Origin: a virus
IMG/VR virus record: IMGVR_UViG_3300044970_002549
Span: 27,158-91,157 of that record
Length of the DNA: 64,000 bases
Reading direction: 5' to 3' (one strand)
Both the position numbers and the translations under genes were made by a program. Shown here piece by piece: positions 3,154-61,156 of the stretch (positions within the stretch are counted from its first letter, which is position 1; each line of letters starts with the position of its first letter). The notes beneath the pieces are model-generated. The model had not been told where the DNA came from. It was given only the letters and a program-made list of their open reading frames with translations, and searched no databases.

Positions 3154-3221
3154 AGTCATCAGGTCATCATCACAGGGCTATTAGGCGACCCCCCATACGA
3201 CCCCCGCACCCCCCTTACCCC
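3154..3221 (+). repeat. Second intergenic repeat block: TCATCA plus C-tracts
   Basis: AGTCATCAGGTCATCATCAC, then GGCTATTAGGCGACCCCCC and three further C-tracts. The 2987-3343 gap contains two such blocks, suggesting loss of a cassette gene or duplication of the spacer. Confidence 0.55.
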
Positions 3222-3266
3222 ATTGCTGGATCGGTCGAGTGCTACCGCTCTGGCTCGTCTTGGCTC

Positions 3267-3343
3267 TTGACGGATTGACCGCTGCCGGCAATACTCGAAG
3301 TGTCGGGCGGCTCTGATCTGCTCGACTAGCACAGGAGGAACCT
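3267..3343 (+). promoter_or_regulatory. Cassette promoter and 5'-hairpin leader
   Basis: TTGACG 3267-3272, 17-base spacer, AATACT 3290-3295. The hairpin 3302-3326 has nine-base arms GTCGGGCGG and CTGCTCGAC, all paired if G-U is allowed, with a seven-base loop. TAGCACAGGAGG precedes ATG 3344. Confidence 0.75.
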
Positions 3344-14734: not shown

Positions 14735-14834
14735 GTTCTATTGTATCATCTGAAATCGGCATCGGTCCTGATGCCCGCAAAACTTTGCATGGCATGCAGA
14801 AACACGGCTGCCTGTGATAGAGCTTGTCGGCCAT
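14691..14834 (-). CDS. Tiny Cys-containing protein (47 aa)
   Basis: ATG 14834 overlaps the portal stop as TAATG; 47 codons end at TAG 14693-14691. The N-terminal part holds CFCMPC, a compact Cys cluster, and the C-terminal part is Lys-rich (KKPKKKRGKK). A metal-binding, DNA-contacting peptide is plausible. It overlaps the methyltransferase start by 44 bases, so translation is coupled to the portal. Confidence 0.55.
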   Translation of the reverse strand: MADKLYHRQPCFCMPCKVLRASGPMPISDDTIELDEKKPKKKRGKKS

Positions 14835-16993
14835 TAGCTTTTTTCGCGGGCCTCAACCTGGCGCATGATCTTTCCAGACCACGACTGACCTGGGTTTCCG
14901 CCCCAAAGCGCCCATGCAATTCTTCCGGCTGATGGGTACCCGGTTTCGCCTTGTGACCATCCCTCGCCCTGTTTGTCGACTTCGTGTCGGGCAAGATAGG
15001 CTCGCATCTTGCGCACCCTCGCAATAGTCATCTTGTTTCCCGTAAGCATTCTGGCAGTAACTTGGCCAGGGCCAATCCCTCCGCGGCCAAACTCTTCTCG
15101 CCAATCAAGTCCTCTGCGCGCTTCGGCCTGAACCGACGATGGCACGTTAAGGTTGATTCCGGAATAGTCAGCGGCCTTATGGGCTTGCTTTATGTCTTCC
15201 GGAGAATGAACGTTTCTCACCCCAACAGAGCGGTATGCATCTCTTGCGGCGGCATCATTCTCAACCGCCTCGACAACATTTCCAAGCTCTTTCATAACTT
15301 TTGACATCTTGTACTTCTTGAACTGAAGACCAGCACCGGCAGGGAAGTCACTCATGTACAGCTCGTCGTGAGGAACATCATTTGCATCAAGCCAGTCCCT
15401 TGTTTCTTCAAGGCGCTTGGTGGATCTGGCACTGATGATAACGATGCGGTGGGTCTCAGACTTTCTTTGAAGATAATCGACCACCGACTCGTTTGGCTCA
15501 TCCGAACCGTCGCTGATTGTTAGGGTTCCGTCAATGTCGCTGACAATAATCGGGTCTCCGGCATCCTTGGAGCTCTGTGACTGGGCTGCCTCCTCTGGCG
15601 TGTTGTCTTCAACCATTCCTTCGCCCTGGTCGGGAGAAGGAACTCCTTGCGGCTGGTTTGCGCTAGGTGGATTGCCTCCATCTGGGTCGTCTTCAGGGCC
15701 CTCTACGATGTTCTCCAAATACTCAAGATAAAGACTCATCGGCATGTAGCCTTGCGGTGTTGGAAGCCAGATCTGCTCGCCCATTTCGCCAACCCCGTCT
15801 TGCCCACGCTCTCGAAGCGCGTCGTTCAGTCGGAGCCACGGTAGCCCGGCAAGTGCCTGCTTGTAGTAAGAAGACATTTCTGTCTGCGTCTGCCGGCCCA
15901 TGTCGGTATAGGCAAAGCGAAGGTTTTCGTCATAGCGCCATACGATTTCCCTTGTGATGTACTCGGCAATCAAATCAAGAAGCGGCGCAATGCCGACGTC
16001 CTGCGTGAATGCAGCCCCAACGTCTGCGGTGCTGCGGTTCACATCAAATCCAATACCGATGTCCTGCGGCTGAACGCCGAATACCGCGCAGATCTTTCGG
16101 GCAAGGTAGACCTGCCACTCCATGAACTGCATGTCGCGGTTAGAAGACGCAAGCGGCATCCACTGCATGCCCTTGCCGCCACCGGTAATTGCTATTTGGC
16201 TTCGTCCTGCAATTTCTGCGTCCCAATATGCGCGGAATGAATCTACTTGGTCCGCACGAACGCCCTCGCCAAGATGCAAAACGCCTGGTGGAGCTGCTGC
16301 CATGACTGCTTTTGCATTGTATGCCGCTGCCGCCAAGTCTGCCTCAATCGTTTCGGAGAGAACTTCTAGGGGCGAGAGGCCAAGCGGTGAGTAGGTGACA
16401 GGGTTGGAAATAATTACAATGAGTTCTTTATTAAGGAATCGTGCAACCTCTCTTCCATCGTCATCAAACTCGAAATACCTAGGGGCTTCGGGGTCGCTTC
16501 CGTCCCACCCTGAATCGAATACGATTCTTGCGGCGTCCTTGCTGTGAATGGCTGCAATCGGCTTGTTGCTTGTTCCGATTCTTCCGCCGTTGGTGGTCTC
16601 TACCTCAATCGCACCCTGGTCAAGCACCAGAATGTCCTCGATAACAGGCTCAATTAGGGAGCGCCACGACTCCATCTTTTGATTTGGCTTTCTGAGCAAA
16701 TCCTTGACTAGTGCAACCTTGCGTGCATTTACTGGGCTGTCTGAGTCCATTGCAACAATGTCCCATTTCGCTCGGCTGACCTGAGTCCTCCGCAGGTTGA
16801 TGGCGGCTCTAATCCATGGGTTGTTTCGGGACCACCTGCGAAGCTGCTGGGTGCTTCGCTTCGCATGATGCGTTACGCCAGCCACACCCCTGGCATATGG
16901 CGCGGAGTCGTATTCCGGAACAGTTGTGATTGCATTGGCGACTATATCGCCGCCACCAAAGAGTCGGCTGAGAAATGAGCGGCGCTCTGCCAT
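14834..16993 (-). CDS. Portal protein fused to a HAD phosphatase domain
   Basis: 719 residues. The first 450 resemble HK97-type portal proteins: the N-terminal 'RSTQQLRRWSRNNPWIRAAIN' and 'SPLGLSPLEVL', 'ICAVFGVQPQDIG' and the wing/stem pattern. The portal forms the dodecameric DNA channel of the capsid. A Pro/Gly linker leads to a HAD domain at about 478-625: DIDGTL (motif I), ISAR (motif II), KKYK (motif III) and ENDAAARDAY (motif IV). This resembles phage polynucleotide kinase 3'-phosphatases. The last 90 residues hold ARHEVDKQGEGW and PSAGRIAWALWGG, a domain seen at the end of other phage head proteins. Transcribed away from the capsid genes, which is unusual. Confidence 0.85.
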   Translation of the reverse strand: MAERRSFLSRLFGGGDIVANAITTVPEYDSAPYARGVAGVTHHAKRSTQQLRRWSRNNPWIRAAINLRRTQVSRAKWDIVAMDSDSPVNARKVALVKDLLRKPNQKMESWRSLIEPVIEDILVLDQGAIEVETTNGGRIGTSNKPIAAIHSKDAARIVFDSGWDGSDPEAPRYFEFDDDGREVARFLNKELIVIISNPVTYSPLGLSPLEVLSETIEADLAAAAYNAKAVMAAAPPGVLHLGEGVRADQVDSFRAYWDAEIAGRSQIAITGGGKGMQWMPLASSNRDMQFMEWQVYLARKICAVFGVQPQDIGIGFDVNRSTADVGAAFTQDVGIAPLLDLIAEYITREIVWRYDENLRFAYTDMGRQTQTEMSSYYKQALAGLPWLRLNDALRERGQDGVGEMGEQIWLPTPQGYMPMSLYLEYLENIVEGPEDDPDGGNPPSANQPQGVPSPDQGEGMVEDNTPEEAAQSQSSKDAGDPIIVSDIDGTLTISDGSDEPNESVVDYLQRKSETHRIVIISARSTKRLEETRDWLDANDVPHDELYMSDFPAGAGLQFKKYKMSKVMKELGNVVEAVENDAAARDAYRSVGVRNVHSPEDIKQAHKAADYSGINLNVPSSVQAEARRGLDWREEFGRGGIGPGQVTARMLTGNKMTIARVRKMRAYLARHEVDKQGEGWSQGETGYPSAGRIAWALWGGNPGQSWSGKIMRQVEAREKS

Positions 16994-27636: not shown

Positions 27637-30600
27637 GTGGCGGAAGAAAATGTCGCAAGAGTTGGCATAGCTCTTGATTCTGCCGCATTCCAGGACGGGG
27701 TATCCCGCGCCCTTCGTGACATCGATCGACTCCTCAGCGGACTCAAGACACTACAGAACGCCAACAGGCAACTCTCCCTTGCTTCTGGAGGCGGACTCTT
27801 CGGCACCGGTTCTAGGTCCCCCGTTGCCAACTTTGCCCGAGACATAAATCGGACAGCGATACCGGCCCTGCGCGATATGGAACGCAATGCGCTCCGTGTT
27901 GGCGGGGCCGTTCGCCGTTCCATGACAGAAATGTCCAGAATGGCATCTGTAGCAGAGCAGGCGCAAGTTCGGCAAGAGCGAGCGATCCTTGCCGGGGAGC
28001 GTCGAGCAATGAGTTCCCGCCGAGGTCGCGGCGGCAGATATCGGGACGAAGGGCTTTTTGGTGCAGTCCCTGCAGATCCTCGAGTTGGATCATTCGAAGA
28101 CCCGCGCAGCCCGTCAGGAAAGATTGCCGCAAGATACGTCCTGCGCACCCTAGAAGAACTCATTACATCAGAGGCAGAAAGCTACCCGCGCATCATGCAA
28201 CCTCGCCCCAGGGGTGGAGCTGGTCGGCAGGCAAGCGTTGGCTCAGAGCAAACTGTTTCTAGCGTCGCAAGCAAGTTTGCCCCGGGTCGAATCTTTAACA
28301 CGTCAACAAACCTAGAAGAGGGACTCCCAGTTACCATCGTTGGTCCTGGCGGGGAAAAGTTTGTTTTGTCAGGGAATGGTCGCGTCATGGGCATGCGTCG
28401 CCTCTCTCAACAGCAGCAAGGACGAGTTCCAATTGTTTCTGCAGTAGAGACATTTGTTGCTGGAAACCCGTCCCTGTTCGGCGGCGCTGAGGGCGTAGAG
28501 GAAACGCTTCGACAGGTTGCAAAAATTGCCAAAGCCAAGCAAACGCCGATACTTACTCGTGAGCTCACACAAACCATCGAGCAGATTGGCGCGCGAGAAG
28601 CCGGGAAACTTGGGCTTGGGCTAAACACTCGCACAGCGATGTCAGAAGCCGAGATGGCAATGGCCGTATCAAAGCTTTTGCAGCGCCCACCGACTGGCCT
28701 TGCAAAGGGAACGCCAGGAAAAGTGCTGTCAGGTGGTGGAGAACCTGTTCGTGAGTTTATTAGCCAAGTACTGGAAGTTCTTCCACCGCAGGTAGTTAGG
28801 TCACGATATCAAACTAGTTCTGGTGAATCAAATAAGCAGTTCCAACAGCTCCTAGAGGGCGTTGCAATGTCGTCTGCGTACGGAAGCAACCCTGCGACAG
28901 AGGCAATGATCACTCGCCTTCTTGAAGGAGGTAAGACTGGCTTGCCTCCGGCTCTTTCTGGAGCGCTTCGGAAAAATCTCGGACCGCAACTAACTCTGCG
29001 TGGTCGAATCGCTTCCGGCGAAATCCCTGCAGAGATGGACCCAATTTACAACAACCTCCCCCAGGCAATCGAGCTATTGACCCAGGCTCAAAAGTCATAC
29101 GGTCCGCGGTTTATGGCCGAACAGATTGGAACGCAGCAAGGCATGGAGCCCGCATCACCACAGGCTCTTAAGCTTGCTCAGGCCATGCGCAAGGCTGGAA
29201 CAGCCGGCCTTCCAGCATTCTTTGAGTCTATTGCCCAGTATGGAAAGAGGGCAGTGTCTGCTACTGCGCCAACGCTAGGACTTGATCCCGGAGCATTTGT
29301 TGCTGACCCAGAGGCGGCAATTCGCATTGCATCCGAAGCGGCCTCCAAATTTGCATCACACAAGGGACCAAAGACAGAGGGCATCCTCTCGTCAATTGTC
29401 GAGGCTGCCATTCGAGAGTTTGCAACACCAGAAGTAATTCAGCCGGTTGCCAAAAAGGCGGCAAAAGGAGCAGCTGCACGAACCGTTGAAAAGGCAGTCG
29501 AAACAAAGGTTGAGCAGGTTGCCGAGGCAGTCGCTGAGGCGGTTACTGACCCAAGAGCCACTAGCATGCGACGACCAGAGTCTGAGCGCTTCTTCAAGGT
29601 AAATCCCCGAGCCATCGGCACAGCCGCAGGATCAGAAAGGGCCCGTTCAGGAGGATACGTCCCATACGGCGAGGCTTCCGAAGCACAGCGTGGCAAGTAC
29701 AACATGACGCTTCTTGGAGGGTATGCAGAGCTAGAAAAGCAATACGAAGAGGCGCAAAAAGAAGCTGAATACATGAAGGAAAACTTTGCCACTAGGCCAG
29801 GGGCCACTCCACACGCTTCAGTCCAGAAAGCAGAAGCACTGCGAGCAAAGCTTACCGAGCTAAGAGGTGTCATGATTGAGCGCGGCCTTCATAAGCCAAC
29901 TATGGCAGAGCAAATTGCAGAGCTATTCACCGGCCCTTCCTCATCATCGTCTGGCCTGACCCCAACCAGAACCTCCGGAGGCGGGGGTGGCGGTGGAGGC
30001 GGGGGACGTCGACGAGGGCCTTCTGGCGGTGGCGGAGGCGGGGAGGAAGAGGAGAAGACCCCTAAGTGGATTCAGAGTTTCCAGGGGGCTCTAGCTGCAT
30101 CCGGGCTTGACCCTCAAACTTTAAAGTACATGACCTCTGGGTTCAAGTTTGGCGCCACCCAGGCTGCCATTGAACCGGGTCTTTTTTCGCAGTCACGCGC
30201 ATCTCTTGAGGCACTTCAGCAATTCGCTGCAGTCCGCCAGCTCAGCATGGTTCAGATGTCTCGTGGGCTTGTTGGTAGCGGAGCAAATGGTTTCTGGCAG
30301 CCACAAGAGGCTGGTGAACGTGGTGGCATTGCTCTTGGTGGATTTGGTGCGAGGACTGCCGCCCCACTCCTAAGGACAATGATTCACGAAATAGCACACG
30401 GCACATTCGAGTCCCTGGTTGCCGGCGGGTACAAGCCTCAGACGAAAGTAGAGATGTATGGGCCAAAGGGAGAAGCGCTTGGCCCGGTAAATGCGCGTCA
30501 AATGCTTGCGCCATTCAAAGAAACAACGGCCAGCGGACACGTCGATCCAGCATTCTATCGATCTCAGGCAATGATCAGCAAGGCTGGCGGCGCGTTACTT

Positions 30601-33600
30601 CCGCAGCTTGCATTTCACAGGATGGTCGAAGAGGTCATGCCGCAGGGACATCTTACCGAGGGAATTGGGTTGGGCAAATTCTCGCAGCTGCTCACCCCGC
30701 ACCTTAAAGAGTTTGCATCTCCCGAGCAGTCAACAGCAGCAGAAGAGTTTGTCAAGTTCTCCGCACGCATCATGGAAGCGACAAACAACTTTACTCAGGG
30801 CGGTATCGGAAAGGGTGGCGCGCTTAGCGTTCTCTCGGAAGGCCTGCAGCAGCTTGGCGCATCAAGCAAGGCGTTCCCTTCAACATTCTTCCTTGAGGCT
30901 GCATCTGTTGTAGGAAATACCCTAAAGAACCTCGAGGCCGGAGACCCGGATAACCTGACCAAGGTTGCAAAGTCGCTCATGAATGCTGCAGCCCTTACCA
31001 TTGGCGAGGGGGAATTCAGGCCTGGCGTAGCAGTTGCGTCAAATGCAGCAAAAGAAGTCGCAAACTACCTTGCTTCAGCAAGCATTGAAGAGAAGGCGGC
31101 AATTGCGCTTGGGGCAAACCCGAAACTTCTTGGAGACACTTCATTTAACCCTGGCAACGAAGGGCATGTCCAGAAGGTTAACGAGGCAATTGCAAACATT
31201 TCTCGTGTCGCATCTGAAACATCACGCGGCGTTGCCGTAGCCCGATTCGTTGGCGGACAGAGAGTCGAGACCCCATACGCTGCGGCCGCAGGACTTCTCG
31301 GTCCGGCTGCGCCTGGAACGCTTGCCGCACAAACGTCTCCACTCCAGTTCCCAGGAGGAAGCCTTGCGCAAAGAATGGCTTACTACGGGTCTCAATCAAC
31401 AGGCCAGCGCGGCATGGAAAGTGCAATCCCTGGAGCGTATCTGCGTGCCAAGGAAGGACAATTTATTGGAATGGGGCCAGCCTACCAGCAGGCATATGCT
31501 TCCGCCCGAAATCGCCAAGAGCTAGAAGCGGGCATCAAATCATCTGCTAAAAGCGAATACGTTCAATCTGCCAACGCGGCCATGCGGTATGCCGAGGTGC
31601 AAAGCCGACTAAACCTGATTGTCCAAAATGGCAATGTCAACTTCTCGCAGCTTTCCAGAGTCCTAACAGACGCAGGCACTGGATTCACCGTCTCCGCAGC
31701 AAATGCGCTCAAGTTTGCTGCCGCCATTGCTGTTGGCCAGCAAATTACCGGCTCGATTGTTGGCGTATTTGAACATCTTAAGGGTGGCATCCTTGGATTC
31801 AACGCAATGCTTGAGTCTGCGAGCGTCGGCTTTACAACGTTGTTCAAGAATGCGGGACGGTCCGTACGAGACGCTGAGTCAGAAACAGCGAAAACAATCA
31901 CCACGCTTCGAGAATTTGCCAACGTTACCAACTTCCGATTCGGAGACCTGGAGACTGCCGCCCTGCGAATGCAAGCGTTCGGATTTGAGGTCGACACCGC
32001 AAGGGCGGCGCTTAAAAAGCAAATGCCAGTTCTCTATGAGGTAAATAACGTTCTCGAGAGAAACGCAACTGGCCTCAAGACCTTCCGTGGGGCACTTGTA
32101 AACATCGGAGATGCGGTAGCGGCACTTGGCGGAGAAGACGACAAGCTTCGAAGAATTACGTACGCACTCGGGCAAATGAACTCTGCTGGTCGCGTATACC
32201 AGAACGACATGATGCAGCTGGCAAACGCCGGTATCGCTGGATACGACATTCTCGCCAAGGCTCTTTTGCAAGAGATTTCCGCAAGCCCAGAACTAAAGAA
32301 GGCCAACGCCGCAATCTACAACAAGCTGATGAATCCAGAGACTGCGGTTGAAGAGGTCCGAAGACTCGCCAAGAGCGGACGACTGTTTGGACCAGGAGCT
32401 GTTCAAGCAATCCTGAAGGGCCTCGAGGAGAGGTACGGCGGGGGAATGAAAGCGTTCTCAAGAACATTCCAGGGAGCGATGACGACAGTTGCCGACACCT
32501 CCCAGTCGCTTGTAGCAACTGCCTTCAACCCACTGTTCTCCGTTGTCCGCGACCTTACGATTCAGCTTGCTGACTTCCTGCAGCAGCCAGAAGCTGAGGC
32601 CGGGGCAAAGAATCTTGCAAAGGCAGTTCTTAGCGTTTCTAATGCAATTAGGACAGGGCTCCCATCTGCACTCTCGACCGCAGATAAGATTCTATCGTCT
32701 ATTACTGGGACATTTGGCAGTCTTGCAGGAAGCGCTGCTGAGGGGACAAGCAGCCTTGGCGGGTTTGTTAGAAACACCATTAAGGGTCTTTCAACTTTCG
32801 GTGATGTTCTAGAAAACTCAGTCATTCGCAAATTTGGATCAGCTCTTGTTGTGGCCAAGCTTTTGTTTGGATTTATTGCCGCAAACCCCCTTCTTGCAAC
32901 GCTGACAGCCGGGACTGCCGGAATCGGGTTCCTTGCCACAGCAATCCAAGAAAATCAGTTTGGGCTTGGAACTGCATTCCAAAAGATAGCTGTCCCGCTT
33001 GAGCAGACCCTTGAAAACCTTGGCAACAATATTATGCCAAGCCTTTCTAATACGCTTACAGCTGCCGCAGGAGTAATTGGCGCAACCATCGCATCCATCA
33101 TGACGGCAATCTCCCCGTTGCTAGAAATTATTTTGAATGTATTGAATATTGTAACTTCTGCCGTAAAGCCATTCTCTTCGGTCCTTGGAGTTGCTCTTGC
33201 GCTATTTATTGGAAAGAAAGTACTAATAGACGGAGTGGCGTCAGCAATGGCCAGATTTGCAATGTTCACCGAGAAAGCTGCTGGATCCGTCGACAACATG
33301 AAAATGAAGTGGTTTGCCGGTCGGGAACTTCAGGCATTTGAGCGATTCGGAAACACGACAATGGGCGCTCAGATGGTTGCCCCTCAATACAACAAGCAGG
33401 GTGAGCTGACCCAGGCTGGAAAGGTCCAATTCGGTCAATTTGGTGGGGCCGGAATGGGATACAGCAGTCCACTTCTTTACAAGATTTTCATGGCCCAGAT
33501 GAAGGAAATGGCTGGCGCGCAAGGATTTGAGTTCCAAAATCTTGCCGGCGATCCAACTGGCGCAGAGAAGTTGACGCTGGAGACCACGCCGATTGCCAAG

Positions 33601-36600
33601 GAGCAGGCTCTTTCGGCGCTTTCATGGCTTAAGGGGCTAAAAACCAGCGATCCAGAAAAGTATAAAGAAACACTTGCAGCCGCTACGCCTTCAGAGCGAC
33701 TTCAGCTTGAGGAGGCAATGAATGCCGGGCTTAGAACTGTTGTTTCTGGGCTTCGTGCGTTTAAGGCAGAGCTGGACAAACTTCCAACGGTTATGCAGAA
33801 GCTTGGCTATATTGGCCAAATTGCTTTTGACAAGATCGGCACACTTGCGGGAGCGGCTACTGGTCTTGGCCTGACGCTATCGACTCTTGGCGGTCTGATG
33901 AATAATGAGGCCCTTGTGGGCTTTGGATCAACTCTCGCCACGGTGGGAATTGCAACATCTGGTCTTGTGATGACATTTACTCAGCTTAAGCAGGCCCTTG
34001 GGCCGTATGGCTTCGCCGGTGCAATTGGCGGCGCCATTTCGGCCCTCGGTCTCCTTGCAGCCGCTGCATACGAAGATCATAAAACCAAGCAGGACGATGC
34101 AAAGTCAGCCCTAAGCGATCTCGGGTCGCTCCAGTCAATCATTGGGCCAGATGCACTGCAGGCCGAATACGGAAATTTGATTGAAGGGCTATCCCGCTCA
34201 TATGAGCTTGGGTTCGACCTGACGGACGAGCAAAAGGCATCTCTTGCCGCCGCGAGGGAAAGACTTGAGGTCCTTAGGGCCCAGATCCGCGAAGACAGAA
34301 TGGAAAACTACACTGGCAAGGGGTCTGCCAGGTACACAATGGAGAAAAATAAAGAGACAATCAGGAACTACGCAATCCGAGGATACACGCCGGAGCAGAT
34401 CGCTGAATTTACCGGATTGAATCTTGACTATGTAAAAAACCTGTTCGAGAACATGGTTCAGGACGGCAGCGAAGCTGGGCAGGAATACATCAAGATTCTT
34501 ACGCAGCAACTTGACGCAACGGGGGAGGCGCTGCAGAAAGCCAAGGACATTCTTGAAAAGGCCACAGAGGCATTCGAGCGTCCGCTCAACCGCCTTATGT
34601 CCAGGGTGCAGACGCTTATTTCTGAGCTATTTGCCGACGAGAAGGAAAAGCTTCAGGAGGAGAGCAGAACTGCGCTTGGAAATATTGAGGTTCTTTACAA
34701 CGGGGAAATGATTCGGCTTGGGGTTCTTGAGGAGCAGCACAGGATTCTCACTGAGCAGCGCCAAGAGATGGAGGAGATGCAGCGACTGGAGGACCTTAGA
34801 ACCAAGGCATCTGAGGCCGCCCTTGAGATGTTCGATGCTGGCACTGACCCGCTTGAACGCGCCAGGGCAGCCAGGGACGCAGCAAGAGACCTGTTTTCTG
34901 AGTCCGAACAGATTCGCCTTGACCAGATGGGCAAAACTATTGAAGAGGCAAAAACTAGCGTGCCGTATATGGCCACATCTGAGGACTATGACCTTCGCAT
35001 CAAGGCGCTTGAGGTTGATCAGCAGGAGCGACAGCGCGTTTTGACCGAGACAATCGACGACCTAATGCGCAAAGTTAAGAACGGAAAGCTTAGCGCCGAA
35101 GAGGCCAAGAAGATGCTGCAAGATGCGTTTGCGGACACCGGCCTTGACCTTGCAGTTGCTTCCGCGCAAGGATACGACTTCATGGAGCACTTCTCATCTG
35201 GGTTCATGGATGCGCTTCAGAAGAACATTGATTTGACATTTAAGCGCCTCCCTGCGCTTATCTCAGCCGCCGTCAGGGCACTCCGTGAGGATGCTGCATA
35301 TAAGAAGGCCCAGGCCGAGCTTTCTGAAATCCTTAACCCAACACCTCTCGACAAAAATATTTCAGGTGCCGAGATGGCTGCGGAGCAAAAAAGATTAATC
35401 GAGCGAGCAAAGAGAACGCTTCAGGCGTTGCAGCTTGCTGAAAACGTCCCAGGACAAACCGCAGAACAAAAAAAGGCACTCACTGGACAGATGTCATCAA
35501 TTGCAATGTATATCAGAAAATTGGAGAAAAATCCATTTGCGGCAAACCTTAATTACTCGGAATCTGAAAAAACACTGCTCACCGAAAACTTTGGAAATCA
35601 GACCAACGCCGCGCTAGGCAAGCTTTTTGCCCTGTTTGGATACGACACAGTTCTGCAGTGGGTGTTTGGTGGGGTCCCAATGGCATCTCGCCCCGGGAAC
35701 ATTAACCCCAGGGCATCTGGGGGCCCAGTTGGTGCCGGAACCTACATGGTCGGAGAGCGCGGACCAGAGATGCTTCAGATGTTCCCGAATGGCGGCGGCT
35801 ATGTTGTGCCTAACCACAAGCTCCCCTCACACATGCGATCTTCTGCTGCTGCCCTTGGCGGTGGAGTTATGGGCCGTGCGTGGGGTGGCGGCGTAGGCAT
35901 CACCAACCCAGAAGTCCCAGTCGGCCGAAGCACCCTGCAAACACCTCTAACTGACATCGCCAACATCGTTGGCGGAAATGTGCAAAGAATCCGCCCTGCA
36001 GCATTCACAAGAACAGTCACCTATGATTTCCCATGGGGCAAAATTGTCATTGACCGATCTATTCATGATGATGTAGTTAGCCGGTTTCCGATCTCAAAGA
36101 TGCAGGAATATGCTGAATTTGCAATGTCCTCTGGGCGACCAGGGACTTTCAGCGAAAAGAATCCTTTTGAGCTTCACCTTACCCCAAGAGTTACTGACAG
36201 GGAGGCTGTTGCATTTGCCCAGTCTGATCTTGTTGGCGTTGAGTGGCACGGGAAAACCGGGCTCAATTTCCCTGACGACGAATCGTTTAGGCAATTGCTT
36301 ACTCACGAAATCGGGCACTCGGTCATGGAGCGCAGCGCTCCGCGTGGCCTTCATCCAATTTTCAGGCCGATGCAAGGCATTGTCCCGCCAATGTACAAGA
36401 AGATTTTTGGCCTTATGGCCGGTCGAACACAAGGAAATATTGCTCGCGGCATGGGCCTCAGCGGATGGGACGATAACGCGATAAGTTCAAGCGGATATGG
36501 TCAGGAAAGCTGGGCAGAGAGCTACGCAGAGCACTATACAAATTATGTCAAGGCAGGTGGAGACACCGCGGCAATAAAATACGGCGAGCTAAACACGTCT

Positions 36601-38286
36601 CCACGCGAGGCTCGCCCAATGCTTGGGACATATATCCAGCGCCTTGCTAATGCTGAAGGATGGCGTCCGCCAACGGCTGCCCCATACCGTGGCCTGCCTG
36701 AGGTTGGACCATCAATATTGCGAAACGGCAAGGCTCAGGCTGGAGTTGGATCGCTTATCGACTTTGCCCAAATGGCCGCAAGCGGAACGCTCAACGCAGC
36801 TAACGCGGCTGCATCAGTTGGCCTTAACGCCCTATCACTTGTTCCTCGCGGCGGAGGAACGCTCTCCGCAGTAGCTGGCCTTGGATTAACCGCTGCTACC
36901 GGCGGAGACATGGGCCGCGCAATATTCTCTACCATCGGATCGGTCCTTGGAGGCATTGCTGGAGGCGCTCTTGGCTCATTCATTGCCCCCGGAGCAGGGA
37001 CCGTTGTGGGCGGCATGGGCGGATCGATGGCTGGTGGCGCATTTGCCGACTGGTTGTACTCATCAATCTTTGGCCCAACAACTGGGCCGTCTACTGTCGG
37101 GGCATTCAGGAAAGGTTCCTTTGCCATTCCAAACCGAGCTTGGGGCGGGGCGGTAGGCCCGTCCGGCCCTGAAGGGGATAACTTTACAAACTTTGGCGAC
37201 AAGGGCAGGACTACTGGGAAAATGCCAGCTGCATTCCTTAATCGGTTCATGAAGTACGGGATAAGTGGCCTTCTAGACAGTCCTTGGCAAAAATATGTTG
37301 GCGGTAGCTACATGCCAGTCTACGGCAATGCCGTAAATGCTTGGTGGGACAGAATCACCGTGGCCTCCTCAGTTCCATTTAGCTCACTTCCTAAGTACCA
37401 GCAGCTAGACGAGATTATGCGCGGAAACTATCTTCCGCCAGAGTTTTACACTGGAAACAAGGACAACCTTTCATATGCAGAGCTGATGGCGTCTCGTGGG
37501 GCCAAGTTCCCCGGCGTGGTACAGGGGTGGCTGACAGCGTTTGGCGAAAAGTCACCCGTCACCTATTGGGACCGAGAGGCTAGGGAGAACAACCCGGAAC
37601 ACGCAGAACACCTTAAATACAATAAGCTTTACAACTGGTGGCGGAAAGTCGGACAGTTCGGAAACTATAAGGGGTATGACGACCCGTACTACCGCTGGAC
37701 CAAAACTATTGATCCAAAAACAGGCATCCTTACCGACACATGGCCAGAAAATGCCCAAACCCGGAAATCTAAAAGGGTTCAGGATCTCATCCCTGAAATT
37801 TCCACATGGATGCTTACTCATGCGGGCCCAATGACGCAAGACTGGTTTGGCAAGGGGTGGACCCTGGACCAGTATGAGTCTTCCCCGTGGGGTAAGAAAA
37901 TGCTTGGGCCATGGAAGAGCATCATGTTTGGCGAGGGCGGGTTTGTAAAAGACATAGAGAAATACTCGCAGAGAGTACAGCAGGGGTGGATGGGTGAGCG
38001 CTATGCGGCAGGGGGAAACTATCGACAAAATCGAGCATTCCTTGTTGGCGAAAATGGCCCAGAGATCATGGTTCCGGGCGGGCTAGGAGGATCGATCATC
38101 CCTAACCACAAGCTGCGCGGACCAGGAAACATCGGGTCAATGGCCAGCGGCCAGAGCGTCAACGCCTCTGTCATTATCAACAATCCAACCGTTTCAAACA
38201 GCGCAGATATTGATAAACTAGCTGCAAAGGTAAGCGAGGCTCAAACACGAGCCCTGCGTGCAGCTGGATATGTAAGGCCGTCATAA
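27637..38286 (+). CDS. Giant tape measure protein with ParB-like and metallopeptidase-like domains
   Basis: 3549 residues from GTG 27637. Layout: helical N-terminus; ddrB-type ParB-like domain at about 180-350 (YPRIMQPR, then SGNGRVMGMRRL at 244-255); Gly-rich linker near 785-805; zincin-like motif HEIAHG at 917-922; the tape measure core from about 1365, with ALGQMNSAGRVYQNDMM near 1510; hydrophobic segments around 1730-1790, 1850 and 2070-2130; coiled coils near 2290-2530; VGERGPE at 2705-2711; second zincin HEIGHS at 2890-2895 with ESWAESYAEHY near 2957; glycine-zipper region near 3090-3155; VGENGPE at 3470-3476. The core sets tail length and reaches the host membrane. The added domains may act on host or capsid targets on ejection. 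Confidence 0.9.
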   Translation: MAEENVARVGIALDSAAFQDGVSRALRDIDRLLSGLKTLQNANRQLSLASGGGLFGTGSRSPVANFARDINRTAIPALRDMERNALRVGGAVRRSMTEMSRMASVAEQAQVRQERAILAGERRAMSSRRGRGGRYRDEGLFGAVPADPRVGSFEDPRSPSGKIAARYVLRTLEELITSEAESYPRIMQPRPRGGAGRQASVGSEQTVSSVASKFAPGRIFNTSTNLEEGLPVTIVGPGGEKFVLSGNGRVMGMRRLSQQQQGRVPIVSAVETFVAGNPSLFGGAEGVEETLRQVAKIAKAKQTPILTRELTQTIEQIGAREAGKLGLGLNTRTAMSEAEMAMAVSKLLQRPPTGLAKGTPGKVLSGGGEPVREFISQVLEVLPPQVVRSRYQTSSGESNKQFQQLLEGVAMSSAYGSNPATEAMITRLLEGGKTGLPPALSGALRKNLGPQLTLRGRIASGEIPAEMDPIYNNLPQAIELLTQAQKSYGPRFMAEQIGTQQGMEPASPQALKLAQAMRKAGTAGLPAFFESIAQYGKRAVSATAPTLGLDPGAFVADPEAAIRIASEAASKFASHKGPKTEGILSSIVEAAIREFATPEVIQPVAKKAAKGAAARTVEKAVETKVEQVAEAVAEAVTDPRATSMRRPESERFFKVNPRAIGTAAGSERARSGGYVPYGEASEAQRGKYNMTLLGGYAELEKQYEEAQKEAEYMKENFATRPGATPHASVQKAEALRAKLTELRGVMIERGLHKPTMAEQIAELFTGPSSSSSGLTPTRTSGGGGGGGGGGRRRGPSGGGGGGEEEEKTPKWIQSFQGALAASGLDPQTLKYMTSGFKFGATQAAIEPGLFSQSRASLEALQQFAAVRQLSMVQMSRGLVGSGANGFWQPQEAGERGGIALGGFGARTAAPLLRTMIHEIAHGTFESLVAGGYKPQTKVEMYGPKGEALGPVNARQMLAPFKETTASGHVDPAFYRSQAMISKAGGALLPQLAFHRMVEEVMPQGHLTEGIGLGKFSQLLTPHLKEFASPEQSTAAEEFVKFSARIMEATNNFTQGGIGKGGALSVLSEGLQQLGASSKAFPSTFFLEAASVVGNTLKNLEAGDPDNLTKVAKSLMNAAALTIGEGEFRPGVAVASNAAKEVANYLASASIEEKAAIALGANPKLLGDTSFNPGNEGHVQKVNEAIANISRVASETSRGVAVARFVGGQRVETPYAAAAGLLGPAAPGTLAAQTSPLQFPGGSLAQRMAYYGSQSTGQRGMESAIPGAYLRAKEGQFIGMGPAYQQAYASARNRQELEAGIKSSAKSEYVQSANAAMRYAEVQSRLNLIVQNGNVNFSQLSRVLTDAGTGFTVSAANALKFAAAIAVGQQITGSIVGVFEHLKGGILGFNAMLESASVGFTTLFKNAGRSVRDAESETAKTITTLREFANVTNFRFGDLETAALRMQAFGFEVDTARAALKKQMPVLYEVNNVLERNATGLKTFRGALVNIGDAVAALGGEDDKLRRITYALGQMNSAGRVYQNDMMQLANAGIAGYDILAKALLQEISASPELKKANAAIYNKLMNPETAVEEVRRLAKSGRLFGPGAVQAILKGLEERYGGGMKAFSRTFQGAMTTVADTSQSLVATAFNPLFSVVRDLTIQLADFLQQPEAEAGAKNLAKAVLSVSNAIRTGLPSALSTADKILSSITGTFGSLAGSAAEGTSSLGGFVRNTIKGLSTFGDVLENSVIRKFGSALVVAKLLFGFIAANPLLATLTAGTAGIGFLATAIQENQFGLGTAFQKIAVPLEQTLENLGNNIMPSLSNTLTAAAGVIGATIASIMTAISPLLEIILNVLNIVTSAVKPFSSVLGVALALFIGKKVLIDGVASAMARFAMFTEKAAGSVDNMKMKWFAGRELQAFERFGNTTMGAQMVAPQYNKQGELTQAGKVQFGQFGGAGMGYSSPLLYKIFMAQMKEMAGAQGFEFQNLAGDPTGAEKLTLETTPIAKEQALSALSWLKGLKTSDPEKYKETLAAATPSERLQLEEAMNAGLRTVVSGLRAFKAELDKLPTVMQKLGYIGQIAFDKIGTLAGAATGLGLTLSTLGGLMNNEALVGFGSTLATVGIATSGLVMTFTQLKQALGPYGFAGAIGGAISALGLLAAAAYEDHKTKQDDAKSALSDLGSLQSIIGPDALQAEYGNLIEGLSRSYELGFDLTDEQKASLAAARERLEVLRAQIREDRMENYTGKGSARYTMEKNKETIRNYAIRGYTPEQIAEFTGLNLDYVKNLFENMVQDGSEAGQEYIKILTQQLDATGEALQKAKDILEKATEAFERPLNRLMSRVQTLISELFADEKEKLQEESRTALGNIEVLYNGEMIRLGVLEEQHRILTEQRQEMEEMQRLEDLRTKASEAALEMFDAGTDPLERARAARDAARDLFSESEQIRLDQMGKTIEEAKTSVPYMATSEDYDLRIKALEVDQQERQRVLTETIDDLMRKVKNGKLSAEEAKKMLQDAFADTGLDLAVASAQGYDFMEHFSSGFMDALQKNIDLTFKRLPALISAAVRALREDAAYKKAQAELSEILNPTPLDKNISGAEMAAEQKRLIERAKRTLQALQLAENVPGQTAEQKKALTGQMSSIAMYIRKLEKNPFAANLNYSESEKTLLTENFGNQTNAALGKLFALFGYDTVLQWVFGGVPMASRPGNINPRASGGPVGAGTYMVGERGPEMLQMFPNGGGYVVPNHKLPSHMRSSAAALGGGVMGRAWGGGVGITNPEVPVGRSTLQTPLTDIANIVGGNVQRIRPAAFTRTVTYDFPWGKIVIDRSIHDDVVSRFPISKMQEYAEFAMSSGRPGTFSEKNPFELHLTPRVTDREAVAFAQSDLVGVEWHGKTGLNFPDDESFRQLLTHEIGHSVMERSAPRGLHPIFRPMQGIVPPMYKKIFGLMAGRTQGNIARGMGLSGWDDNAISSSGYGQESWAESYAEHYTNYVKAGGDTAAIKYGELNTSPREARPMLGTYIQRLANAEGWRPPTAAPYRGLPEVGPSILRNGKAQAGVGSLIDFAQMAASGTLNAANAAASVGLNALSLVPRGGGTLSAVAGLGLTAATGGDMGRAIFSTIGSVLGGIAGGALGSFIAPGAGTVVGGMGGSMAGGAFADWLYSSIFGPTTGPSTVGAFRKGSFAIPNRAWGGAVGPSGPEGDNFTNFGDKGRTTGKMPAAFLNRFMKYGISGLLDSPWQKYVGGSYMPVYGNAVNAWWDRITVASSVPFSSLPKYQQLDEIMRGNYLPPEFYTGNKDNLSYAELMASRGAKFPGVVQGWLTAFGEKSPVTYWDREARENNPEHAEHLKYNKLYNWWRKVGQFGNYKGYDDPYYRWTKTIDPKTGILTDTWPENAQTRKSKRVQDLIPEISTWMLTHAGPMTQDWFGKGWTLDQYESSPWGKKMLGPWKSIMFGEGGFVKDIEKYSQRVQQGWMGERYAAGGNYRQNRAFLVGENGPEIMVPGGLGGSIIPNHKLRGPGNIGSMASGQSVNASVIINNPTVSNSADIDKLAAKVSEAQTRALRAAGYVRPS

Positions 38287-50994: not shown

Positions 50995-51745
50995 TTTGTC
51001 CTCCAAAATTTTGACCAGTGAGGCGACATGCCTCCCGTATTACCGAGTTTACATTACAGTCCAACCCTTCGTCAACATAGGTCAGCTTGATAATGTTTGG
51101 GTGTCTTTTGACAATCTCTGCCACCACCTCTGGGTTTTGATCTGTTTCAATTCTAGCAAGTGCAGCTGGCCCGCCTGGCTCTAGGGCATCAGAATGCAGA
51201 ACACTTAACCACAGATTAGAAAACTCCGCATTAACTTCTAGGAGTTCAATAAACGTTTTGTCTATAAGGAAATAGTCATCATCACCATGAGCGCCCAGAT
51301 AGGACTGCATTGCGCTAATCCAAATCAGTGGAATTCTTGAACCTTTCGTTGAGGCCATAAACCACCCGCACGCGCCCGGAACCCCGACCGGCTCGTGCGC
51401 CTCCCATCCCTTCCCTGCATTAATCCACTTCTGTCCTTGATACATCCAAAAATCCTCCCGCAAGGGGAGCCACTCATCTAATGGTCGCAGGCACATAACG
51501 CTAGCATCAGTCCACACGCCCCCATACGCATGCATAAGGTATAGGCGAATTAGGTCCGAGCGCTTTTGTGGTGAAAGATATTTAGGGGCAATAGCCTCTG
51601 GCACATAGTCTGTGATGTTTTTTTCTGTCAGGCGAATTATTTCCCAATCTGGGTTTAATTTGATCCATGAATCTAGGCAAATCCTTGCGACACGTGGGGC
51701 CCGATCCCATCCCTGAAACCATAAGATCCAAATTCTTTTAATCAA
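50984..51745 (-). CDS. Capsular-polysaccharide-type glycosyltransferase
   Basis: 253 residues. Carries the Caps_synth/DXD-sugar-transferase core: RSDLIRLYLMHAYGGVWTDA near residue 62, followed by GVWTDASVMC, and W-rich acceptor region. The D-A-S form instead of DxD is usual for the capsular subgroup. It begins MIKRIWILWFQGW, the typical first strand. Likely adds a sugar to a glycan or a virion protein. Part of a run of glycosyltransferases. Confidence 0.75.
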   Translation of the reverse strand: MIKRIWILWFQGWDRAPRVARICLDSWIKLNPDWEIIRLTEKNITDYVPEAIAPKYLSPQKRSDLIRLYLMHAYGGVWTDASVMCLRPLDEWLPLREDFWMYQGQKWINAGKGWEAHEPVGVPGACGWFMASTKGSRIPLIWISAMQSYLGAHGDDDYFLIDKTFIELLEVNAEFSNLWLSVLHSDALEPGGPAALARIETDQNPEVVAEIVKRHPNIIKLTYVDEGLDCNVNSVIREACRLTGQNFGGQNVG

Positions 51746-52826
51746 TTGGATAAGCCCCTACATTTGCATATTCGTATTGATTCCTTCTGACAAGGTTGTT
51801 AAACTTAAAGTACATTTTTCTGTTGGCGTCTCCAAGATATACCCCAGCATACGCCTCATATGCCTTAATTTTGTTTTTGTTATCTGGATTTGTAAAATAT
51901 TTCTGCATATTTTTATTAATTTCCTCAAAGATGTCCCCTGCTAATCCGACGCCCACAGCAAGGTCCTTAATGTTTGCCCTATCTCCATACTCTTCAGTTT
52001 TCTCCTCGCAATACATATGGAGAATTGGGCAGGTAACATACGGGTAAACTAGACTAAATCCATTGTCAATCAACTCAATTGACTGAACAATCTCCTCTTC
52101 CCAAAACAAAAATTCAGGGTGGAGCCCAACATACTGCACAAGAATCCTTGTTGAGAACATAAATGCACCAGTGACCTTTATGGCTGGTGCAAACCCCGTT
52201 TCGGTCACAAGCTTTTCTAGGTTCATTGTCACATGGCTCGGGCTTTTGTGTCTCCACCTTGGGATCGCGTCCTTTACCCACCACCAACCCGTCATCCAAT
52301 ACGGATAACCGACAACATCACTTTCACTGTAGTCAAGTTCGTAGTTTTTTTGCAATGGATACCAATAGGGCTCGGGAACTCCGGTAATAACTGTTCTCTC
52401 ATTGTTTGTTATTTTTAAAGCCCGGCTATGCGTTTCAATCAGTTTGCTGTCCCAGTCTTTTACGAAATAAGAGTGCGCGTCAACCTGTAGAACGTAGTCT
52501 TCGTCCCCGTACATGGAATACGCTGCATTTCTTCCTTTGCCAATCCCATAATTTTCTGCAAGTGAAAAATGCTTAATTATTACATTTGGTATAGAGAATA
52601 TGTCTGGAGATTCTTGCTGCTGGCTAGCGAATGACTCTTCCGTAGATATGTAAGCAACACCTATGGAGACGTCGTTATTTCCTGATCTGTTTTGCAGGCA
52701 CGACAATATAGTGACTGGGAGCTCGGAATCACGCTCCAATACGGATACCGCCACATAAATACTTTTTCTTACGGCGTTGCTGGGCATGTGTGTACGGATT
52801 GAGTTTTTACTATAGATGAATGCCAT
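51738..52826 (-). CDS. GlcNAc-type glycosyltransferase (PF11397-like)
   Basis: A 362-residue protein with SIYVAVSVLERDSELPVTIL, GIGKGRNAAYSMYGDEDYVL and LQVDAHSYF, matching the GlcNAc-transferase family where the DxD-like element is in 'LQVDAH'. Later KVTGAFMFSTRI and EEEIVQS fit the acceptor half. ATG 52826 lacks a clear ribosome site; ATG 52787 is an alternative. It overlaps the GT25 gene by 58 or 19 bases. Its base composition is visibly more AT-rich than the left half of the window. Confidence 0.72.
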   Translation of the reverse strand: MAFIYSKNSIRTHMPSNAVRKSIYVAVSVLERDSELPVTILSCLQNRSGNNDVSIGVAYISTEESFASQQQESPDIFSIPNVIIKHFSLAENYGIGKGRNAAYSMYGDEDYVLQVDAHSYFVKDWDSKLIETHSRALKITNNERTVITGVPEPYWYPLQKNYELDYSESDVVGYPYWMTGWWWVKDAIPRWRHKSPSHVTMNLEKLVTETGFAPAIKVTGAFMFSTRILVQYVGLHPEFLFWEEEIVQSIELIDNGFSLVYPYVTCPILHMYCEEKTEEYGDRANIKDLAVGVGLAGDIFEEINKNMQKYFTNPDNKNKIKAYEAYAGVYLGDANRKMYFKFNNLVRRNQYEYANVGAYPID

Positions 52827-58259: not shown

Positions 58260-59759
58260 TTATCCGACTATAATACCTACGCTATCGCCGGATGAAACAT
58301 AGGTAGCATACCATAAGTCTATCTGGTTTGTCTCTCCTGGGTTTTGGCTCCCAAGCGGGGCAACCCCCATCCCGTGACCAACCGAGAAGAGGTGGTCTGT
58401 CTGGCCGGAGGCCTGGGACCCAGACGTTGCGGCGGATGTCGTCCACGCGGCATCGGTATATACCGTAGCGGTGTATGATCCACCAGCCGTCACCACCTTG
58501 ATGGAGCCCCAGGTTTCAGTTGAAGATGTGCTGTCATAGAGGGCGGCTGAGGTGTAGTGATTTGTCCTAGACCCAGAGGAAATCCTGTCCACCTTCAGGT
58601 AATACCTGTACTGATAGGCTGGAGCTGTTGACAAGCATGCATCATAGCAGTCAACGCCGCTCGTTGGGACGCATGTGCTGCAAGCATTTGTATTCCCTCC
58701 AGACGCCGTGCAGGTGCAGGTAATGGTTGACTCAACTCCGGTTGTTCCACATGATGTGCAGACCGTGTTAGCAGATCCACAAGTAGTGTTTCCGCAGGAG
58801 TAGGAACCCCCGGAAACTGGGGTACAAGCGTCGGTTGCGCATGTGCCAACATATGAATTGCTAGATCCGCAGCTATATACGGTCTTTAAATTTCCGCCAC
58901 TTGCATAATTTCCGCCAGTGATAGCGTTGTAACTGATTGCGTTGTAGTTTGTTTTATATGTGCTGCACCCGCCCGGGCTAGTAATTGGGTTTCCAGCGTT
59001 TGTTCCTGCGGGAGAAAAAACTGAAGCTCCGCTTTTACTTGTTCCATTTTTAGTGTACCTCGGGTTGCCAGCGTTTTTTCCATTTGTTGTTGGTGAACTA
59101 TATGTAGAGCACGGGGTGTTAGCGACATTGCCACCTTTTTGATTCCCTCCGCTAATAGGATTATAGTTTGTAGCGTTTTCAACAACATTGGATTCACATG
59201 TTTGTGCATTATTTCCTGATGGCTGAGCGCAGTTTGCCGTGCCGCATACCCTCTGAGTTTCCGTAACCGTTCCAGATGCCCTAGAGGGAACTCCGCTTTC
59301 ACTACAGGAGCATGCTCCGTGGGTTGTGTCTGTACATCCACATGCCACATTTGACACGAAAGAATTGCTCTGACCAGTTGTATACACCGTAGGGTTTATG
59401 TTTCCGCCGCCGCACCCAGTGCACGACGTACATGAGTAGTATCCGCCAACGCAAGTTGTCCCGCTTTGGTATCTCTCACCATAAACGTAAGAAATCCAGT
59501 AGTTGCTTGAATCTGCGACCCAGAACGCTGCCCCGACGCCGTTTCCTAGCGTCGCGCCAACTCCAGTCTCAATTCCAACCTCTGCATCTGAGTTTGGGAT
59601 AACACACCATGAAACATCTGATGACTGGGTATTGTTTGCGGCATTTGTGGAAATATTCCACTGGGTGGCATTTTGCCACGCAAGATTACCAGTGTCAGTT
59701 GACCCAAGAGTTCCTTGGCTTGTATCTGCCCTGTTAAATGTATCGGATACCGTTGCCAT
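58260..59759 (-). CDS. Cys/Asn-rich tail-fibre-like protein (499 aa)
   Basis: N-terminal segment (SDTFNRADTSQGTLGS, YWISYVYGERYQS) looks like a concanavalin/laminin-type adhesion domain, and the C-terminal 110 residues repeat this look (YYLKVDRISSGSRTNHYTSA). Between residues about 105 and 395 is a region exceptionally rich in Cys, Asn, Gly, Thr and Ser, with many CxC and CxxC. Such density is odd for a phage protein made in the cytosol. It may bind metals, or form disulphides after release. It starts by TAATG coupling to the next fibre gene. Confidence 0.6.
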   Translation of the reverse strand: MATVSDTFNRADTSQGTLGSTDTGNLAWQNATQWNISTNAANNTQSSDVSWCVIPNSDAEVGIETGVGATLGNGVGAAFWVADSSNYWISYVYGERYQSGTTCVGGYYSCTSCTGCGGGNINPTVYTTGQSNSFVSNVACGCTDTTHGACSCSESGVPSRASGTVTETQRVCGTANCAQPSGNNAQTCESNVVENATNYNPISGGNQKGGNVANTPCSTYSSPTTNGKNAGNPRYTKNGTSKSGASVFSPAGTNAGNPITSPGGCSTYKTNYNAISYNAITGGNYASGGNLKTVYSCGSSNSYVGTCATDACTPVSGGSYSCGNTTCGSANTVCTSCGTTGVESTITCTCTASGGNTNACSTCVPTSGVDCYDACLSTAPAYQYRYYLKVDRISSGSRTNHYTSAALYDSTSSTETWGSIKVVTAGGSYTATVYTDAAWTTSAATSGSQASGQTDHLFSVGHGMGVAPLGSQNPGETNQIDLWYATYVSSGDSVGIIVG

Positions 59760-61156
59760 TAGAAGGTGGCCTCCACGGTGACTGAAAGATCTGCACCTGA
59801 AGTACCGGCATCTACAATCTCAACCTGCAATACGTCGCCAATCGCAAGCGACGTTACGGTGCTTAGGGAGGTGGTCACAACGGCCCCGCCAACCGAAGCG
59901 CTTGTATTGCCGTTGGTGGAACCGTTCTTCACGAGGCGATAGGTCACGCCAGAGCCGCCGCCAGCATAGGCTCGAGCGTTGACAAGCGTGCAGGCGATGG
60001 GGGAGATAAACCTTGGCTGCTTTACTCCAGCTGCCAAGGTTCCAGCGATGTGGAATGAAATTGGCATGTAAAGCGTTTCAAGCTTTGTGTAATGAGCAGA
60101 GCTCATGGAGCCAGCGTTTGAGCCGCTTGCTGCGTCAATGGATAGTGTATTGCCAGACTTCTGGAGCGGGGCGGTGGCTGTGATTTGAGAGGCGCCAGTG
60201 AACTGAGTGTAGGTAATGTTGTCGGTGCCGATTTTAATAGCGCCAACTGGGTTGGTAGATGTTCCCGTGGACGTCATGACAAAGCCCATGTTGGCATTCA
60301 CTGTCCCGTTCAGGACAAAAACAAAGTCACCTTGGTTGAGCTCTCCGGCTGGGCTGTTGTCCGCGTCGTTAGCCCGAGTGAGAACCCACGGCGTACCCGC
60401 ATCGCCAACAGTCGTGACCTTGTATACGCCATTTTGTGTATGTGTTGACTGGTTCTTTACAAGAATTCGGTCATTTTGAATTGCAGAATAGGAATCAAGC
60501 ACAAGGGCGCCATTAGAAGATGACGTAAGGGTTGCCCCGATCCCGAGACCGCCAGAGGCGTCTGCAGTGCCTGCCGTGTAAGTAGAGGCAAGGTTTGCGG
60601 TCGTTGCCGCATCAACCGCCTCATGCGCATGGATACCAGCCGAGATGTTGTCGGCGTATTGCTTGGTTACCGCCTGCATTGCGCTCGTTGGGTCGGCCCC
60701 AAGGGTAATCTGGTTGATGGCAGTGTTTGCGCTTCCGTCCCTAAGGACAATTGTGCTGTTGTTAGCTGACGCAGTTGCGGTGGTCTGAGCGTTGAGTACG
60801 GTCAGCGTATTGCTGTTGCCGTCAATTGTCTTATTGGTCAGTGTCTGGGTGTCGCTTGTCCCGACAATGGCCCCAGACACGCCGTGGGTTGCAGTCAGAC
60901 CAGCATGGGTGCTGACCTTGGTTGTCGCATCTGAAGCCGCAGATGAGATGGCGTCTGACTCTGCGGTATCGGCTTTTGCCTGAGCCCCGTCTGGGGTTTC
61001 GGTTGAGAAGGGTAGGGACGTCCACGCAGTACTGCCAGTTCCAATCTTGAACTGCTTGTTAGTGGTGTCGTAGCCAATCTCGCCAGCCGCAAGGGTTGGG
61101 TTGACCGAGGCCCAGTTGGCCGCAGTGTCCCTTCTTGGCTTAATGATGTTTGGCAT
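59759..61156 (-). CDS. Tail fibre protein with shared beta module (465 aa)
   Basis: Begins with the fibre N-terminal motif RRDTAANWASVNPTLAAGEI...TGSTAWTSLPF, common in receptor-binding fibres. The middle has a module also found in the next gene: AGTADASGGLGIGATL, RILVKNQS, NGVYKVT, WVLTRANDADN, GDFVFV. The C-terminal part is a beta-rich tip domain. Likely trimeric and host-contacting. Coupled by TAATG to the genes on both sides. Confidence 0.75.
   Translation of the reverse strand: MPNIIKPRRDTAANWASVNPTLAAGEIGYDTTNKQFKIGTGSTAWTSLPFSTETPDGAQAKADTAESDAISSAASDATTKVSTHAGLTATHGVSGAIVGTSDTQTLTNKTIDGNSNTLTVLNAQTTATASANNSTIVLRDGSANTAINQITLGADPTSAMQAVTKQYADNISAGIHAHEAVDAATTANLASTYTAGTADASGGLGIGATLTSSSNGALVLDSYSAIQNDRILVKNQSTHTQNGVYKVTTVGDAGTPWVLTRANDADNSPAGELNQGDFVFVLNGTVNANMGFVMTSTGTSTNPVGAIKIGTDNITYTQFTGASQITATAPLQKSGNTLSIDAASGSNAGSMSSAHYTKLETLYMPISFHIAGTLAAGVKQPRFISPIACTLVNARAYAGGGSGVTYRLVKNGSTNGNTSASVGGAVVTTSLSTVTSLAIGDVLQVEIVDAGTSGADLSVTVEATF

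What the first reader, a model, noticed from the sequence alone, without database searches (positions are those of the whole stretch)
28180..36600. Tape measure carries polyvalent-protein domains: ParB-like plus two zincin-like sites
In the same 3549-residue frame as the tape measure core lie a ddrB-type ParB-like domain (about 180-350, QPR then SGNGRVMGMRRL), HEIAHG at 917-922, and HEIGHS at 2890-2895 with a downstream ESWAESYAEHY that provides a plausible third ligand. ParB-like and zincin domains are recurring parts of phage 'polyvalent' proteins thought to act in the recipient cell, such as P1 DarB-type factors. Attached to the tape measure they would be ejected with DNA, a direct delivery route for anti-host functions or wall/membrane penetration.
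Basis: partly seen in the sequence, partly recalled or inferred. Interest (0 to 1): 0.88.

Follow-up and report, generated by a model that had tools for sequence, protein, structure and literature searches.

The report
Phage tape measure carrying injected-enzyme domains
The giant tail-ruler protein of an uncultured virus of bacteria also carries a DNA-handling (ParB-type) domain and two different metal-dependent protease-like domains, conserved across a family of similar viruses, so the part that measures the tail and opens the cell probably also brings enzymes into the host.

Summary
One 3549-residue frame (window 27637-38286, +) holds a tape-measure core, an N-terminal DdrB-type ParB domain above Pfam's cut-off, and HExxH at 917 (Z1) and 2890 (Z2). 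Seventy-seven IMG/VR relatives test it. Of 42 distinct complete tape measures, 20 of 24 longer than 3000 aa carry HExxH and 0 of 18 shorter ones do (30 motifs seen, 0.3 expected). ParB and Z1 occur in every complete near relative. Z1 keeps H-E-H plus an [H/E]-x-D-P partner. Z2 keeps HExGH plus a downstream Glu motif at about 20% identity; its third ligand is probably E2961. AlphaFold models have zincin-like topology, but no fold match is significant. Z2 behaves as an exchangeable cassette: 26% identical between two phages whose flanks are 96% and 69-86%, and absent from some close relatives. Best reading: a tape measure that is also a polyvalent protein, with Z1 a likely self-processor that frees ParB and Z2 a variable host-facing protease. 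Activity, zinc binding, virion processing and delivery are untested. Polyvalent proteins and an enzyme-fused tape measure (P23-45) are known, so this is a new variant of a known kind.

The parts
27637..38286 (+). tape measure protein ORF, 3549 aa, GTG start
   Evidence: the relative L002 aligns from residue 1 with 94% identity in the first 50 aa
28120..28416 (+). DdrB-type ParB domain, residues 162-260 (family-conserved stretch about 152-291); QPR 28198-28206, SGNGR 28369-28383
   Evidence: Pfam PF18763 above cut-off; found in all near-clade TMPs whose N-terminus is in hand; QPR and SGN-R invariant
28540..28923 (+). conserved unassigned segment following ParB, residues 302-429
   Evidence: profile finds it in the same 9 TMPs as ParB
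29938..30054 (+). Ser/Gly-rich linker between the ParB half and Z1, residues 768-806 (poly-Gly 781-790 and 797-802)
30109..30810 (+). Z1 zincin-like domain, residues 825-1058
   Evidence: A9 alignment, 11 sequences; H, E, H invariant; AlphaFold mean pLDDT 78, pTM 0.77; found only in TMPs of this family
30385..30399 (+). HEIAH, residues 917-921
30532..30552 (+). SGHVDPA; candidate third ligand H968 (Glu in L012 and L014), invariant D970-P971
32077..32517 (+). tape-measure core, residues 1481-1627 (TMP_3)
   Evidence: 77 viral relatives found with residues 1380-1660
32821..33252 (+). cluster of transmembrane-like hydrophobic segments, residues 1729-1872
   Evidence: hydropathy scan
35893..36726 (+). 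exchangeable cassette, residues 2753-3030
   Evidence: 26% aa identity to L002 at 2790-3010; flanks 96% (left) and 69% then 86% (right); absent from L011, L013, L014
36007..36687 (+). Z2 zincin-like domain, residues 2791-3017
   Evidence: A11 alignment, 10 sequences; AlphaFold mean pLDDT 66, pTM 0.68; weak matches to M1 gluzincins and lethal factor
36304..36318 (+). HEIGH, residues 2890-2894
36493..36540 (+). GYGQESWAESYAEHYT; candidate third ligand E2961 and Tyr Y2954
   Evidence: family signature Y-x(5,6)-E-x-x-A-[EDQ]-x-[FY]

Best explanation
The protein is a tape measure that doubles as a phage-type polyvalent protein. Its middle sets tail length and carries membrane-spanning segments (family knowledge). 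Its N-terminal third carries a DdrB-type ParB domain and a zincin, Z1; its C-terminal region carries an exchangeable zincin cassette, Z2. At ejection the whole chain, or processed pieces, leaves the tail ahead of or with the DNA (inferred). Z1 most likely cuts the tape-measure chain itself, during maturation or after entry, to free the ParB half, for example in the Gly-rich linker at 768-806 (inferred). The freed ParB half then acts on DNA in the cytoplasm, as proposed for P1 DdrB (inferred). Z2 more likely cuts a variable host target, envelope or cytoplasmic, because it turns over far faster than its flanks and is missing from some relatives (pattern shown, role inferred). Shown here: domain presence, conservation of catalytic and partner residues, purifying selection on ParB and Z1, cassette behaviour of Z2, plausible folds. 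Not shown: zinc binding, proteolysis, virion processing, delivery.
For: ParB above the Pfam cut-off. ParB and Z1 in every near-clade TMP complete at both ends; third codon positions near-saturated (38-42% identity) while positions 1+2 are 84-89%, so both are under purifying selection. H-E-H of Z1 are 3 of only 12 invariant columns. Z2: H, E, G, H of HExGH invariant and the third-ligand E near-invariant at about 20% identity in three or more TMP lineages. 30 HExxH in 42 distinct complete TMPs against 0.31 expected; 20/24 of long and 0/18 of short ones. Held-out profile tests recover Z1 at 1e-42 for the window plus L004, and Z2 at 1e-6 to 1e-39 for all groups except the window itself (0.001, correct place). 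Models have the order of helix, sheet, HExxH helix and (in Z2) Glu helix that Iyer et al. give for polyvalent MPTases. Nearest solved folds of Z2 are M1 gluzincins, probability up to 0.92; four of six weak sequence matches are lethal factor, to which Iyer et al. also tied the N4 virion RNA polymerase MPTase. A relative's TMP also carries a PI3/PI4-kinase-like segment. P23-45 shows that an enzyme at a TMP's N-terminus works in the host (PMC10770324).
Against: No structure match reaches E 0.001, and Z1's best (MATCAP) has probability 0.1. Z1 and Z2 match no Pfam metallopeptidase model. The window's own Z2 is only weakly recovered when held out. Z2 model confidence is low between the HExxH helix and the Glu helix. 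The assignment of self-processing to Z1 and host attack to Z2 rests on evolutionary pattern only. No virion proteomics, no host and no close cultured relative are known.
Confidence: 0.6

Rival explanations
1. Both zincins are assembly proteases: they trim the tape measure or neighbouring tail proteins during morphogenesis and have no role in the host. ParB would then be a passenger or a DNA-contact domain at the head end.
For: Tape measures of several phages are proteolytically trimmed (own knowledge of the family); Iyer et al. propose autoprocessing of DdrB before packaging. Z1 is as conserved as the rest of the chain.
Against: Z2 is absent from near relatives and diverges sharply between fixed flanks, unlike an enzyme acting on a conserved virion substrate. 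Short TMPs of the family do without any HExxH.
Confidence: 0.2
2. The zincins are envelope-penetration enzymes at the tail tip that cut surface or periplasmic proteins or peptide cross-links to let the tape measure reach the membrane.
For: Some tape measures carry wall-degrading motifs (TM4 peptidoglycan hydrolase motif, cited in PMC13277306). Z2 lies in the C-terminal part, which in studied siphophages faces the tail tip (own knowledge). Variable cassettes would fit variable host surfaces.
Against: No match to M23, NlpC/P60, lysozyme or other wall-lytic Pfam families. Z2's weak relatives are protein-cutting gluzincins. It does not explain Z1 or ParB in the N-terminal third.
Confidence: 0.15
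3. The HExxH segments are structural remnants without catalysis, kept because they shape the tape measure or fill the tail lumen.
For: No activity data; fold matches are weak.
Against: H-E-H and partner residues are among the very few invariant positions in both families, and all Z2-bearing TMP sequences in hand keep HExxH. Inactive remnants would lose them first.
Confidence: 0.05

Closest known systems
Phage-type polyvalent proteins (Iyer et al. 2017, PMC5512222), prototype P1 DdrB
   Same: DdrB-type ParB plus zincin-like domains in one very large protein encoded among virion genes
   Different: Here the carrier is the tape measure; that paper's main text never mentions tape measures. There are two zincins here, of unproven relation to each other, and neither matches a Pfam metallopeptidase model.
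Thermus phage P23-45 tape measure gp96 (PMC10770324)
   Same: Giant tape measure (5002 aa) with an enzyme in its N-terminal portion and an annotated metallopeptidase domain
   Different: P23-45 carries an RNA polymerase; no ParB domain is named in the passages read. Homology of its metallopeptidase to Z1 or Z2 was not tested.
N4-like virion RNA polymerases with MPTase domains
   Same: Injected multidomain protein with an HExxH domain tied to lethal factor by profile search (Iyer et al.)
   Different: Not a tape measure; T7-like polymerase instead of ParB
Gluzincins of the lethal-factor (M34) and M1 type
   Same: HExGH, then a Tyr 6-7 residues before E-x-x-A-[ED]-x-[FY] in Z2 (lethal-factor spacing from own knowledge)
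   Different: Sequence and fold similarity not significant; Z2 has its own conserved F-x-W-G strand upstream
Tape-measure-derived contractile injection system effectors (Sle1; PMC13277306)
   Same: Tape-measure scaffold with exchangeable functional domains
   Different: Bacterial effector, not a phage virion tape measure; no peptidase, zinc or ParB mentioned

Membership tests
Tape measure protein | TMP_3 core and very long ORF among tail genes | tested here: met
   TMP_3 at 1481-1627, 37.8 bits, just under the cut-off of 41 for the window itself; the relative L013 exceeds it (42.3 bits); tblastn to annotated tape measures at E down to 1e-13
DdrB-type ParB domain (PF18763) | curated profile score; conserved QPR and GN-R motifs | tested here: met
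   33.2 and 38.9 bits against 27.6; QPR and SGN-R invariant in 10 TMPs
DdrB-type ParB domain (PF18763) | DNase or nucleotide-hydrolysing activity | not testable with these tools
   needs purified protein
Phage polyvalent protein | two or more biochemically disparate domains in one phage protein, encoded near virion genes | tested here: met
   ParB plus two zincin-like domains in the tape measure
Phage polyvalent protein | delivered into the host | not testable with these tools
   inferred from tape-measure biology and P23-45
Zincin metallopeptidase (Z1) | HExxH plus third metal ligand conserved in homologues | tested here: met
   H, E, H invariant; [H/E]-x-D-P downstream, D-P invariant
Zincin metallopeptidase (Z1) | zincin fold | tested here: inconclusive
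   model pTM 0.77; best PDB matches include MATCAP, MMP-11 and DPP3, probability 0.12 or below, E above 1
Zincin metallopeptidase, gluzincin type (Z2) | HExxH and Glu ligand on a following helix | tested here: met
   HExGH invariant, E near-invariant across 10 sequences; model places E171 (residue 2961) in helix 169-182
Zincin metallopeptidase, gluzincin type (Z2) | zincin fold | tested here: inconclusive
   top PDB matches are M1 gluzincins (E 0.057, probability 0.92), not significant
Curated Pfam metallopeptidase families (including those built for polyvalent proteins) | match to a curated model | tested here: not met
   no metallopeptidase match at E up to 10 for Z1 or Z2

The most novel reading that the evidence does not exclude
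Tape measures of a widespread group of uncultured phages are a general delivery platform: a fixed N-terminal ParB-zincin unit that acts in the cytoplasm plus a C-terminal slot into which different proteases are swapped, so that the ruler and pore protein is also a toxin-like, exchangeable effector carrier.
Probability: 0.35. Interest if true: 0.8.

Novelty: new variant of a known kind. Interest (0 to 1): 0.62.

Why it matters
It joins two known ideas, polyvalent injected proteins and enzyme-fused tape measures, in one conserved family. It gives concrete residues (H917, E918, H921, H968; H2890, E2891, H2894, E2961) with which to test whether tape measures carry early anti-host enzymes into the cell. 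The variable Z2 slot offers a way to find phage proteases and their host targets.

Tried and rejected
Megablast and tblastn against cultured phages found no relative of Z1, Z2 or the full DNA; ParB hit only a weak 29.5% match in a Shewanella phage protein annotated as methyltransferase. Genome scans gave no clear prophage: none for Z1 and one 27% match for the core, in Rhodoblastus; the host stays unknown. A degenerate scan with Z2 found no further relatives in viral contigs. Profile comparison of Z1 with Z2 aligned only the HExxH helix, so common origin is not claimed. Sequence search of Z1 against solved structures gave nothing. A tree of the core was used only for the L012/L014 sister pair: its Z2 labels were incomplete (L023, which has Z2, was left unlabelled, and several near relatives dropped out). 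Two Pfam container scans failed for length. Pfam side hits on fragments (GLOD4_N, SHOCT-like) were below cut-off and ignored.

Full report
Observation. The ORF at 27637-38286 (+) encodes 3549 residues without interruption. By composition, 0.014 HExxH motifs are expected in this protein; two occur. Pfam gives ddrB-ParB at 162-260 above its cut-off, and TMP_3 at 1481-1627 just below its own. The window lies in a 91,157-base IMG/VR virus record.

Relatives. A search with the tape-measure core (1380-1660) returned 77 viral loci at 35-90% identity. Distant annotated tape measures of Arthrobacter and Bacillus phages match at about 25%. In 42 distinct tape measures complete at both ends, 20 of 24 longer than 3000 aa carry HExxH and none of 18 shorter ones do; 30 motifs are seen and 0.31 are expected by composition (rows are related, so this is not a formal test). 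In the nearest clade, every TMP complete at both ends has ParB and Z1, while Z2 is present in some and missing from L011, L013 and L014. L012 (with Z2) and L014 (without) are sisters at 100/100 support in the core tree (its Z2 labels for other rows were incomplete). The enzymes are thus accessory modules on a tape-measure scaffold.

ParB. QPR, EG, SGN and R are invariant in 10 family members. Between the window and L002 the domain is 85% identical; codon positions 1+2 are 89% and position 3 is 42% identical, so it is under purifying selection. No ddrB-ParB was found outside the near clade in 20 records tested, all of which may be fragments.

Z1 (825-1058). In 11 family members H917, E918, H921 and D970-P971 are invariant. 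The residue two before the Asp is His in nine and Glu in two, as expected of a metal ligand. Held-out profiles recover the window and L004 at 1e-42. The model has mean pLDDT 78 with a helix, strands and the HExxH helix; best solved matches include MATCAP, MMP-11 and DPP3, all zincins, but with E above 1. A scan of viral contigs found Z1 only in this tape-measure family.

Z2 (2791-3017). Ten sequences from at least three TMP lineages share F-x-W-G, HExGH and Y-x(5,6)-E-x-x-A-[EDQ]-x-[FY] at about 20% identity. This sets the third ligand as E2961 and a candidate Tyr as Y2954. The same spacing occurs in lethal factor (own knowledge), which also heads the weak solved-sequence matches (E 0.053). 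The model places the Glu in the helix after the HExxH helix; the nearest folds are M1 gluzincins, probability up to 0.92, E 0.057. The window's own Z2 is the most divergent and is only weakly recovered when held out, but matches L012 and L004 pairwise at 8e-8 and 1e-6 (single-comparison values).

Cassette. Identity between the window and L002 falls from 96% at 2700-2752 to 26% at 2790-3010, then returns to 69% at 3030-3100 and 86% at 3100-3549. The window's Z2 matches that of L012 (37.0 bits) slightly better than that of L004 (33.9 bits), although L004 is by far the closer phage in the core. This fits replacement of the cassette or very fast divergence.

Mechanism. Iyer et al. (PMC5512222) propose that zincins in polyvalent proteins process the chain or attack host proteins, and that DdrB-type ParB acts on DNA after entry. 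P23-45 (PMC10770324) shows an enzyme at a tape measure's N-terminus that transcribes pre-early genes. By analogy, the conserved ParB-Z1 unit is most likely released and active in the cytoplasm, and the fast-changing Z2 most likely faces a host target. These roles are inferred; none was shown. A search of the held literature for tape measure protein, ParB and zincin together found no paper; tape measure with zincin found two, one of them a jumbo-phage survey whose passages do not describe such a fusion, the other not read. The library lacks most subscription journals, so novelty is judged within it.

Verdict. The feature is real and conserved. It is a new variant of a known kind rather than a new kind.

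Noticed in passing
window 14834-16993 (-): The portal protein carries a C-terminal HAD or PNK-phosphatase-like segment (residues about 461-607; polynucleotide kinase PHROG E 6e-11), and lies on the strand opposite to the capsid genes.
   Followed up: no
window 59759-61156 (-): Protein with a major tropism determinant N-terminal domain (E 2.4e-14), although no reverse transcriptase is found in the 91-kb record.
   Followed up: partly
L022:929-17422: A 5498-aa relative tape measure with three HExxH sites and a PI3/PI4-kinase-like segment at 689-734, above the Pfam cut-off.
   Followed up: partly
L008 and L009, C-terminal third of the tape measure: Several hundred extra residues of unknown function lie between the conserved GERGPEM segment and Z2.
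   Followed up: no
window 51738-52826 (-): GlcNAc-type glycosyltransferase among minus-strand genes.
   Followed up: no
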